NCBI RefSeq assembly: GCF_011044495.1
Contig: NZ_CP049143.1
Location: 1,550,001 to 1,614,000 of the forward strand
DNA: 64,000 bases
Direction: 5' to 3'
Source: Roseimicrobium sp. ORNL1
GTDB taxonomy: Bacteria > Verrucomicrobiota > Verrucomicrobiia > Verrucomicrobiales > Verrucomicrobiaceae
Shown here: in pieces, positions 45,582 to 46,677 of the stretch
Numbering within the stretch: position 1 is the first letter of the stretch
Layout of the letters: the number at the start of each line of letters is the position of its first letter
Made by a program: the position numbers and the translations under genes
The notes under the pieces: model-generated
The model's database searches: none
What the model saw: only the letters and a program-made list of their open reading frames with translations
What the model was told of the DNA's origin: nothing

Positions 45582-45754
45582 GCGGTCAGCGTAGAAGGCG
45601 GATCGGAGCACCAGCGGTTACGAAGGAGACGCCCCCTCTCTTGCCTTTGGGTCGTGCGCAGAGGCGTCTGGAAAAGGATAGCACACCAGGCGAGGCAGCA
45701 TTCTCCATGGGAGGAGACTCTCTTCTCGCTAGCCCCGCCTTGGCATCAGGGCAC

Positions 45755-45834
45755 AAAAAAGCGAACCCGCTGGGTTGACTCTAGGAAAAAAACCCCCAAA
45801 ACCTAGAGGACAATGATCAGCGGGTTCGCTTTGT
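45755..45834 (-). ncRNA. Candidate small structured RNA ending in a T-run
   Basis: On the minus strand, a 15-base stem (45818-45832 pairing with 45758-45772; GCGAACCCGCTG core) encloses a 7-base inner stem (45802-45808 with 45779-45785) and a G/T-rich loop. It is followed directly by six T residues (45755-45760), the form of an intrinsic terminator. A CATAAT box at 45845-45840 would place a start near 45833, so the whole transcript could be about 80 bases. The 331-base gap 45582-45912 separates divergent genes, so no neighbouring gene needs this terminator. It might instead be only a terminator of an antisense transcript. Confidence 0.45.
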
Positions 45835-45912
45835 AGGAAATTATGCCGTCCAATTCCTTCTGCAAAGAAAAATCGTTGGGGACCCGCAGGATTTTCTAAC
45901 TTTTGCCCTAAA

Positions 45913-46677
45913 TTGACTGTGCATCGTGATTACAACGTAAAATTTGGCCCCCTTTGGGTGGTCTTCTGTCTGGCATTTTTCGGTTTAACAGACGTCCGCG
46001 GGCAGGTTCCGAGTCAGGCCCGACAGCTCGTTGTGGCCGTCGCGCCGGACTGGGATTCCATGCGCGCCTCCCTCCAGTGCTGGGAGCGGGAATCGGCCAC
46101 TTCTCCTTGGAAACCCGCCTTCAAATCGCCTTGGCCCGTGCTCCTGGGAAAGAAGGGAATGGCTTGGGGGCGAGGGGTTTCAACGCCCACAGATTCCTCG
46201 ATCCCCTGGAAAATGGAAAAGGATGGCAAGGCGCCAGCCGGGGTTTTTGAGTTGGGCCGACTCCATGGTTATGCAGCGGGCCCTCCTCAGGGATCGGACT
46301 GGCCCTACCTTCAGGTTGGCCCTTATGACGCATGGGTGGATGATCCTCGTCTGCCCCACTACAACCAGCATGTCCGCGTGGATCCGGAGAACATTCCCTC
46401 GTGGTTCGAGAGCCAGCGCATGAGGCTGGGCGATGCCGCCTACAAGTGGCTGCTGGAAATTCGCCACAATACAAATCCTCCACAGCCTGGTTACGGCAGC
46501 GCCATTTTCTTCCACGTGCGCCGCGGCCCCGACCGTCCCAGCGCCGGCTGCACCACCATGGCAGTGGAGAATCTGGAAAACATGATCCGCTGGATTCGGG
46601 AGGAAAAACGCCCGTACTACGTGCTGCTTCCCAAGGCGGAGTATGACAAGGTTCGGAAGTCGTGGGGGCTGCCGTGA
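45913..46677 (+). CDS. L,D-transpeptidase-like secreted protein
   Basis: The product has about 254 residues with an N-terminal export segment (LWVVFCLAFFGLTDVRGQ). The catalytic region SAIFFHVRRGPDRPSAGC has the histidine and the cysteine of YkuD-type L,D-transpeptidases (H-x-SxGC pattern), preceded by DGKAPAGVFELG. Such enzymes cross-link peptidoglycan or attach proteins to it. The start is unclear: TTG at 45913 or GTG at 45919 are possible. Confidence 0.85.
   Translation: MTVHRDYNVKFGPLWVVFCLAFFGLTDVRGQVPSQARQLVVAVAPDWDSMRASLQCWERESATSPWKPAFKSPWPVLLGKKGMAWGRGVSTPTDSSIPWKMEKDGKAPAGVFELGRLHGYAAGPPQGSDWPYLQVGPYDAWVDDPRLPHYNQHVRVDPENIPSWFESQRMRLGDAAYKWLLEIRHNTNPPQPGYGSAIFFHVRRGPDRPSAGCTTMAVENLENMIRWIREEKRPYYVLLPKAEYDKVRKSWGLP

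What the first reader, a model, noticed from the sequence alone, without database searches (positions are those of the whole stretch)
45755..45845. Compact hairpin RNA with its own -10 box and T-run terminator between divergent genes
On the minus strand, 15- and 7-base nested stems end in six T, and CATAAT lies just before the stem. As both flanking genes point away from it, no gene needs a terminator here. An RNA of about 80 bases beginning and ending at this hairpin fits. No known RNA family matches by eye.
Basis: partly seen in the sequence, partly recalled or inferred. Interest (0 to 1): 0.55.

Follow-up and report, generated by a model that had tools for sequence, protein, structure and literature searches.

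The report
New conserved small RNA in Verrucomicrobia
The hairpin is most likely the gene of a roughly 78-base non-coding RNA, not found in the RNA family library, that recurs with matching base-pair changes in many related Verrucomicrobia; it looks like a real RNA family whose job is still unknown.

Summary
On the minus strand, window 45832..45755 folds into a 15-bp stem, a bulged middle, a 7-bp stem and a 16-base G/U loop, ending in T6 (z -5.1, 0 of 200 shuffles). The own genome holds one copy. Model R1 matches 57 of 68 genomes of the same family at E 2e-16 or better. Wider models find it elsewhere in the order and in two other families of the class, with up to 11 copies per genome. In 69 distinct sequences both stems covary: 19 of 21 pairs have double changes, 0 of 500 shuffles match, and sliding the partners destroys it. 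Upstream lies a conserved sigma-70-like box in the window's family, and often a sigma-54 box in three other families. Neighbouring genes vary. No Rfam family fits; five paper searches listed no description. So: a stand-alone, self-terminating small RNA of a new family. I infer that the G-run of its apical loop is the active part, pairing with C-rich RNA or holding a protein. No target was found; Hfq and ProQ were not detected. Expression is untested.

The parts
45755..45832 (-). Predicted small RNA (about 78 nt); start and end are inferred
   Evidence: R1, R2 and R3 place it at 45754-45836; fold z -5.07
45818..45832 (-). Outer stem, 5' arm (AAAGCGAACCCGCTG)
   Evidence: covariation of this stem among relatives
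45758..45772 (-). Outer stem, 3' arm (CAGCGGGTTCGCTTT)
45802..45808 (-). Inner stem, 5' arm (CTCTAGG)
   Evidence: inner stem covaries
45779..45785 (-). Inner stem, 3' arm (CCTAGAG)
45786..45801 (-). Apical loop UUUUGGGGGUUUUUUU, nearly unchanged among the family members aligned
   Evidence: loop with GGG in 70 of 70 rows of A5 and 86 of 88 rows of A6
45755..45760 (-). T6 of the intrinsic terminator
   Evidence: tail counts
45838..45843 (-).
   Evidence: place of the -10-like box in relatives; choice of TAATTT over CATAAT by eye
45861..45866 (-). Probable -35 box TTTGCA, after a T-tract
   Evidence: T-tract and TTGCA in the f1 upstream alignment; kept in the same-genus genome

Best explanation
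The feature is the gene of a small non-coding RNA of about 78 nt. A promoter sits directly upstream, and the whole transcript is one long hairpin that also acts as its terminator. It belongs to an RNA family not listed in Rfam, found in the order of the window's genome and in two further families of its class. Supported by comparison: the hairpin, its covariation, its strand, the promoter conservation and the independence from neighbouring genes. Inferred: the apical G-run, exposed on a stack of U-U mismatches, is the active part and works in trans, most likely by pairing with short C-rich stretches of target RNAs (about 0.4), alternatively by holding a protein (about 0.3). In relatives separate copies carry sigma-54 or sigma-70-like boxes, so copies would respond to different signals. 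The confidence given is for the RNA gene and its family, not for the mechanism.
For: Fold z -5.07. 57 of 68 same-family genomes match R1 at E 2e-16 or better. 19 of 21 pairs with double changes, 92.7% of cells paired, 0 of 500 shuffles, slid versions 28-49% paired. RNAalifold on A5 recovers both stems, 14 of 15 pairs with compensatory changes. f1 upstream: T-tract, TTGCA and a TATAA-like box in the alignment; the best-scoring box pair of a simple scan falls there in 30 of 42 loci. Sigma-54 boxes upstream: f3 7 of 10, f33 3 of 3, f31 7 of 8, f2 12 of 58, against shuffle expectations of 0.3, 0.22, 0.22 and 2.2. The sigma-54 DNA-binding domain is in 74 of 75 genomes of the order searched. Tandem and dispersed copies. 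In the window the sense strand scores 74.8 bits, the antisense 34.7.
Against: No expression data. A5 was fitted to the R1 structure, so its counts lean towards it; on the unfitted MAFFT alignment A3, RNAalifold gives the outer stem (7 of its first 10 pairs with double changes) but NOT the inner stem, which that alignment shifts by a column in some rows. No target found: the loop complement AAAACCCCCAAAA with up to one mismatch occurs 5 times in the own genome, one of them the locus itself (my estimate for random sequence is about 9; the tool's own control is void because the pattern reads the same backwards). No excess of C-runs at the divergent gene. Hfq and ProQ were not found. The sigma-70-like box was not tested against shuffles, 12 of 42 loci score better elsewhere, and the generic scan finds no promoter in the window. 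f5 (0 of 3), f4 and f6 (0 of 1 each) and most f2 copies (46 of 58) have no sigma-54 box. In 8 of 42 f1 loci and one f3 locus a gene of the window's downstream cluster c2 follows in the same direction.
Confidence: 0.8

Rival explanations
1. Attenuator or leader hairpin of the downstream PSCyt/DUF1553 gene, whose ORF starts 143 nt further on in the same direction.
For: Same orientation and a terminator-like hairpin before the gene; an ORF of the same cluster (c2) follows in the same direction in 8 of 42 f1 loci (window, L015, L016, L018, L072, L052, L058, L075) and in one f3 locus (L114).
Against: In the other f1 loci the downstream ORF is of another cluster, and in L024, L064, L067 and L074 a long ORF faces the RNA. 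In the other families the clusters differ (domains of ten f31/f33 neighbours). ORFs were called mechanically.
Confidence: 0.07
2. Plain transcription terminator (of an antisense or unannotated transcript), not an RNA gene.
For: It is a good intrinsic terminator; plain terminators with similar stem bases give weak model hits (L126, L127, L288, L291, L292).
Against: A terminator needs no conserved apical loop and no promoter just before the stem; those plain-terminator hits lack the loop. In f1 an ORF of the YkuD cluster is divergent upstream in 34 of 42 loci.
Confidence: 0.06
3. Rival for the mechanism only: a protein-binding decoy, in which the apical U-tract/G-run holds an RNA-binding protein rather than pairing with mRNAs.
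For: Highly conserved loop in f1; no target found by the two tests made; the U-U stack capped by G looks structured (read by eye).
Against: No candidate protein; Hfq and ProQ not found in the own genome; outside the order mostly only the G-run is kept.
Confidence: 0.3
4. DNA element (recombination, replication or protein site) that folds as a single strand, not an RNA.
For: Single strong copy in the own genome; covariation alone cannot tell RNA from folded single-stranded DNA.
Against: Strand-specific T-run and promoter-like boxes; several dispersed copies in Akkermansiaceae-type genomes.
Confidence: 0.03

Closest known systems
sigma-54-dependent bacterial small RNAs such as Qrr, GlmY/GlmZ and CrcZ (recalled, not from a call)
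   Same: Short stand-alone RNA with intrinsic terminator, in some relatives several copies, sigma-54 box in f3, f31, f33 and part of f2
   Different: Another phylum; no Rfam match; one single hairpin; the window's own family shows no sigma-54 box beyond chance (1 of 42, shuffle expectation 1.8)
Small RNAs with G-rich or G/U-rich seed regions such as GcvB region R1 (recalled)
   Same: An exposed stretch of only G and U in 47 of 70 sequences of A5
   Different: GcvB uses an unpaired linear region and Hfq (recalled); here the stretch is a hairpin loop and no Hfq was found
Intrinsic (Rho-independent) terminators
   Same: G+C-rich stem plus T-run
   Different: Conserved apical motif, promoter-like boxes upstream, homology across families; the plain terminators hit by the models lack the loop

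Membership tests
Any Rfam 15 family | Score at or above the gathering cut-off | tested here: not met
   0 matches in the window; best of the region 23.3 bits against a cut-off of 100; one sub-threshold match in seven relatives, away from the RNA
Stand-alone bacterial small RNA | Conserved structure with compensatory changes | tested here: met
   for both stems; (unfitted alignment) for the outer stem only
Stand-alone bacterial small RNA | Own promoter and terminator, independent of neighbours | tested here: met
   by sequence only; promoter of f1 not tested against shuffles
Stand-alone bacterial small RNA | Detected transcript | not testable with these tools
   no expression data available
sigma-54-dependent small RNA | GG-N10-GC promoter at start-site distance | tested here: not met
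   for the window's own family f1: 1 of 42 (expected 1.8); found in f3 7 of 10, f31 7 of 8, f33 3 of 3, f2 12 of 58
Hfq- or ProQ-dependent small RNA | Chaperone encoded in the genome | tested here: not met
   own genome: 0 matches for PF17209 (found in 5 of 14 control genomes) and PF04352 (found in 1 of 14)
Riboswitch/attenuator | Constant downstream gene family in the same direction | tested here: not met
   window's downstream cluster in 8 of 42 f1 loci; facing ORFs in others

The most novel reading that the evidence does not exclude
A regulatory RNA system of Verrucomicrobia that works without Hfq: paralogous one-hairpin RNAs whose common recognition module is a U-U mismatch stack capped by a G-run, with copies wired to sigma-54 or to sigma-70, so that several signals converge on one set of C-rich target RNAs or on one unknown RNA-binding protein.
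Probability: 0.3. Interest if true: 0.78.

Novelty: new variant of a known kind. Interest (0 to 1): 0.6.

Why it matters
A table in a review, of which I saw that passage, counts 8 distinct annotated small RNAs for the whole group of Planctomycetes, Verrucomicrobia and Chlamydiae (PMC9029176). This would be a conserved small RNA family across a verrucomicrobial order and beyond, in a genome without detectable Hfq or ProQ, with a recognition element that no Rfam model matches. Named strains hold it by record title: Brevifollis gellanilyticus, Luteolibacter pohnpeiensis and Haloferula sp. BvORR071 with the full structure, and several Prosthecobacter assemblies by the loop pattern. It is therefore directly testable.

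Tried and rejected
Attenuator of the downstream gene: held unlikely because downstream neighbours vary and sometimes face the RNA. Regulation of the divergent YkuD-cluster gene through C-runs: 22 of 42 regions with CCCC against 24.5 expected, 11 with CCCCC against 10.5. Extended pairing of the loop with targets: pattern AAAACCCCCAAAA with up to one mismatch, 5 places in the own genome including the locus itself; the tool's reversed-pattern control is the same pattern and says nothing. Coding capacity: one of three sense frames is open through the 83 nt but has no ATG, GTG or TTG, and lengths of loop and bulges change among relatives. Phage carriage: three viral contigs match the loop pattern, none gives more than 19.5 bits with R3. 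The 24 not tested have verrucomicrobial or Prosthecobacter titles. Rfam near-matches (MIR9486, SNORD22 and others) are far below cut-off. Plain terminators in Akkermansia-type genomes (L126, L127), elsewhere in the class (L288) and in the own genome (L291, L292) were judged false positives of the models; the genome tallies still contain such hits and are upper limits.

Papers: only listings (20, 20, 12, 15 and 15 papers listed of 1,970, 595, 190, 671 and 211); passages in PMC9029176 and PMC2864571; word searches for verrucomicrobial names without any occurrence in PMC11109978 and PMC8632094. None of what I saw describes this RNA. The library holds open-licence papers only; supplements were not searched.

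Rows dropped: A5 was made from 26 of the 42 f1 loci; the window and other f1 loci, most of them because their antisense strand would pass the threshold, and L126, L127, L145, L146 and L147, were left out. A6 was again a chosen set. In one search one f5 copy (L109) was dropped for lack of upstream sequence. L147 and L289 were not used in the counts.

Full report
WHAT IS THERE. On the minus strand the sequence from 45832 to 45755 folds into one long hairpin: a 15-bp outer stem, an asymmetric middle, a 7-bp inner stem and a 16-base loop made only of U and G, with T6 at the 3' end. The fold is far more stable than shuffles (z -5.07, 0 of 200). The + strand also folds, but the models score the minus strand much higher (74.8 against 34.7 bits).

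RELATIVES. In the own genome model R2 gives one strong match; the two weak ones are plain terminators. A search with the bare DNA matched 59 of 68 genomes of the same family at E 0.1 or better, many of them only over 22 bases of loop. Reading the fetched places showed the hairpin with the loop GGTTTTGGGGGTTTTTTTCC nearly unchanged while both stems differ. A model built from 37 of them (R1) finds 60 of the 68 family genomes at E 0.1 or better, 57 of them at E 2e-16 or better. In the order, 161 of 386 genomes have some match (26 of 50 genera), an upper limit because short plain terminators, as in Akkermansia-type genomes, are included. R2 finds 55 of 384 genomes of the class at E 0.01 and R3 32 of 387 of the phylum at E 0.001. 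Outside the order the full-length matches that I read are in two families of the class, f31 (8 loci of 7 genomes) and f33 (3 loci of 3 genomes); matches outside the class are 36-47 nt long, the length of plain terminators, and I did not read them. Record titles place the families: Prosthecobacter, Brevifollis and other Verrucomicrobiaceae; Luteolibacter and Haloferula. f2 genomes carry several copies, up to 11 in one genome (G141), some in tandem a few hundred bases apart; tandem copies are seen in L121, L124, L125, L129, L130, L302, L304 and L311 of f2, L119 of f3 and L110 of f5.

COVARIATION. On the MAFFT alignment A3, not fitted to a structure, RNAalifold gives the outer stem, with double changes at 7 of its first 10 pairs; it does not give the inner stem, because A3 shifts some rows by a column there. 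On A5 (70 sequences, 69 distinct, four families of the order) 92.7% of cells pair, 19 of 21 pairs have double changes and 285 cells carry one; no shuffle of 500 reaches any of the five measures, and sliding the partners by 1 to 3 columns drops pairing to 28-49%. A5 was aligned to the model, which favours the structure; RNAalifold's own fold of it gives both stems, with double changes at 14 of 15 pairs. One outer pair occurs as six standard types, so this is not one inherited change.

THE LOOP. Within f1 the loop is AGG-UUUU-GGGGG-UUUUUUU-CCU; in f2 mostly AGG-UUUUU-GGG-UUUUU-CCU; in f3 often AGG-UUUUAC-GGGG-GUUUUU-CCU; in f5 AGG-UUUAA-GGGGG-UUUUUU-CCU. My reading is that the two U-tracts oppose each other as U-U mismatches, with A-U and C-G pairs appearing in f3 and f5, so that a run of G caps the hairpin. 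In f31 and f33 the U-tracts are mostly gone but a run of G remains. The loop holds GGG in 70 of 70 rows of A5 and 86 of 88 of A6; the exceptions are L276 and the copy L311:1162. For sequences used to build the models this is partly by construction. A cruder count, any GGG in the middle of the hit, gives 124 of 124 but includes stem bases.

PROMOTERS. Upstream of the f1 copies the alignment shows a T-tract, TTGCA and a TATAA-like box; the best-scoring box pair of a simple scan falls at that place in 30 of 42 loci and elsewhere in 12; no shuffles were run for this. In the window it is TTTGCA (45866..45861), 17 nt, TAATTT (45843..45838). TTTGCA lies 28 nt before AAAGCG here and in L072 (counted by eye). 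Transcription would start at about 45832. In other families a sigma-54 box (GG-N10-GC with good flanks) is frequent: f3 7 of 10, f33 3 of 3, f31 7 of 8, f2 12 of 58; f1 1 of 42, f5 0 of 3, f4 and f6 0 of 1 each; expected from shuffles 0.3, 0.22, 0.22, 2.2, 1.8, 0.1, 0.04 and 0.06. Distances to the model start are nearly constant within families (16 nt in f31, 17-18 in f33, 17-21 for 11 of the 12 in f2, 51-57 in f3). Score and threshold were my own, set from the recalled consensus. The sigma-54 DNA-binding domain is in 74 of 75 genomes of the order that were searched, including the own genome. In f2 37 of 58 copies have GTCGC just before the stem, against 2.7% of shuffles; with a sigma-54 start this would be near the 5' end of the RNA.

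CONTEXT. In f1 34 of 42 loci have a divergent ORF of one cluster upstream, which in the window has a YkuD L,D-transpeptidase domain. The downstream ORF varies: the window's cluster follows in the same direction in 8 of 42, other clusters in the rest, and a long facing ORF in L024, L064, L067 and L074. In f2, f3 and f5 neither is kept as a rule. ORFs were called mechanically and a few are surely wrong frames. Near f31 and f33 copies lie DNA ligase, a phosphoesterase, a DUF7453 and glyoxalase-domain proteins. No context names a function.

FUNCTION. Supported: conserved RNA-like hairpin, terminator, promoter-like boxes, independence from neighbours. Not shown: transcription. Inferred: a trans-acting RNA with the G-run as the active site. 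Two tests for a target found none: the extended loop complement is not in excess in the own genome (5 places with up to one mismatch, including the locus; about 9 expected in random sequence by my estimate), and C-runs are not enriched at the divergent gene. Hfq and ProQ were not found in the own genome. A protein-binding role is almost as likely as pairing. Noted but not tested: in the window CCUCU can pair with GGGGG in front of the U7, a second, inner terminator-like hairpin, which would give a shorter RNA.

KNOWN OR NEW. No Rfam family at gathering level in the window and nothing credible below it. Five paper searches listed no description, in an open-licence library and by listing only. 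It works like a stand-alone bacterial small RNA; the sigma-54 copies recall Qrr, GlmY/Z and CrcZ (from memory), but membership in any of these is not supported.

LIMITS. Genome tallies depend on rough E-values and on models built from chosen loci. Confidence 0.8 refers to the RNA gene and its family; the pairing mechanism alone I put at 0.4.

Noticed in passing
45913-46677 (+) and f1 loci: An ORF of the YkuD (L,D-transpeptidase) cluster stays divergent to the RNA in 34 of 42 loci of the family; whether the two share regulation is unknown.
   Followed up: partly
window 45809..45793 (-): Inside the RNA, CCTCT can pair with GGGGG directly before seven T: a possible inner terminator that would give a shorter transcript.
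   Followed up: no
L302, L304, L298, L301, L311, L141 (upstream of the RNA copies): Copies within single Akkermansiaceae-type genomes differ in promoter: some have a sigma-54 box, others do not.
   Followed up: partly
f2 loci, within about 20 nt before the stem: Conserved GTCGCGACA or GTCGCAAGACA, in part a perfect palindrome, probably near the 5' end of the RNA (37 of 58 contain GTCGC).
   Followed up: partly
L113, L114, L116, L119, L138, L144: In f3 the sigma-54 box lies 51-57 nt upstream, so the RNA would carry an extra 5' domain of about 40 nt; 7 of 10 have GGGTTGAA just before the stem.
   Followed up: no
L183 (CAMAZK010000340.1): A record titled Akkermansia muciniphila matches the G053 contig in number and position, which the genome search places in family f1, apart from g12; possibly a mislabelled assembly.
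   Followed up: no
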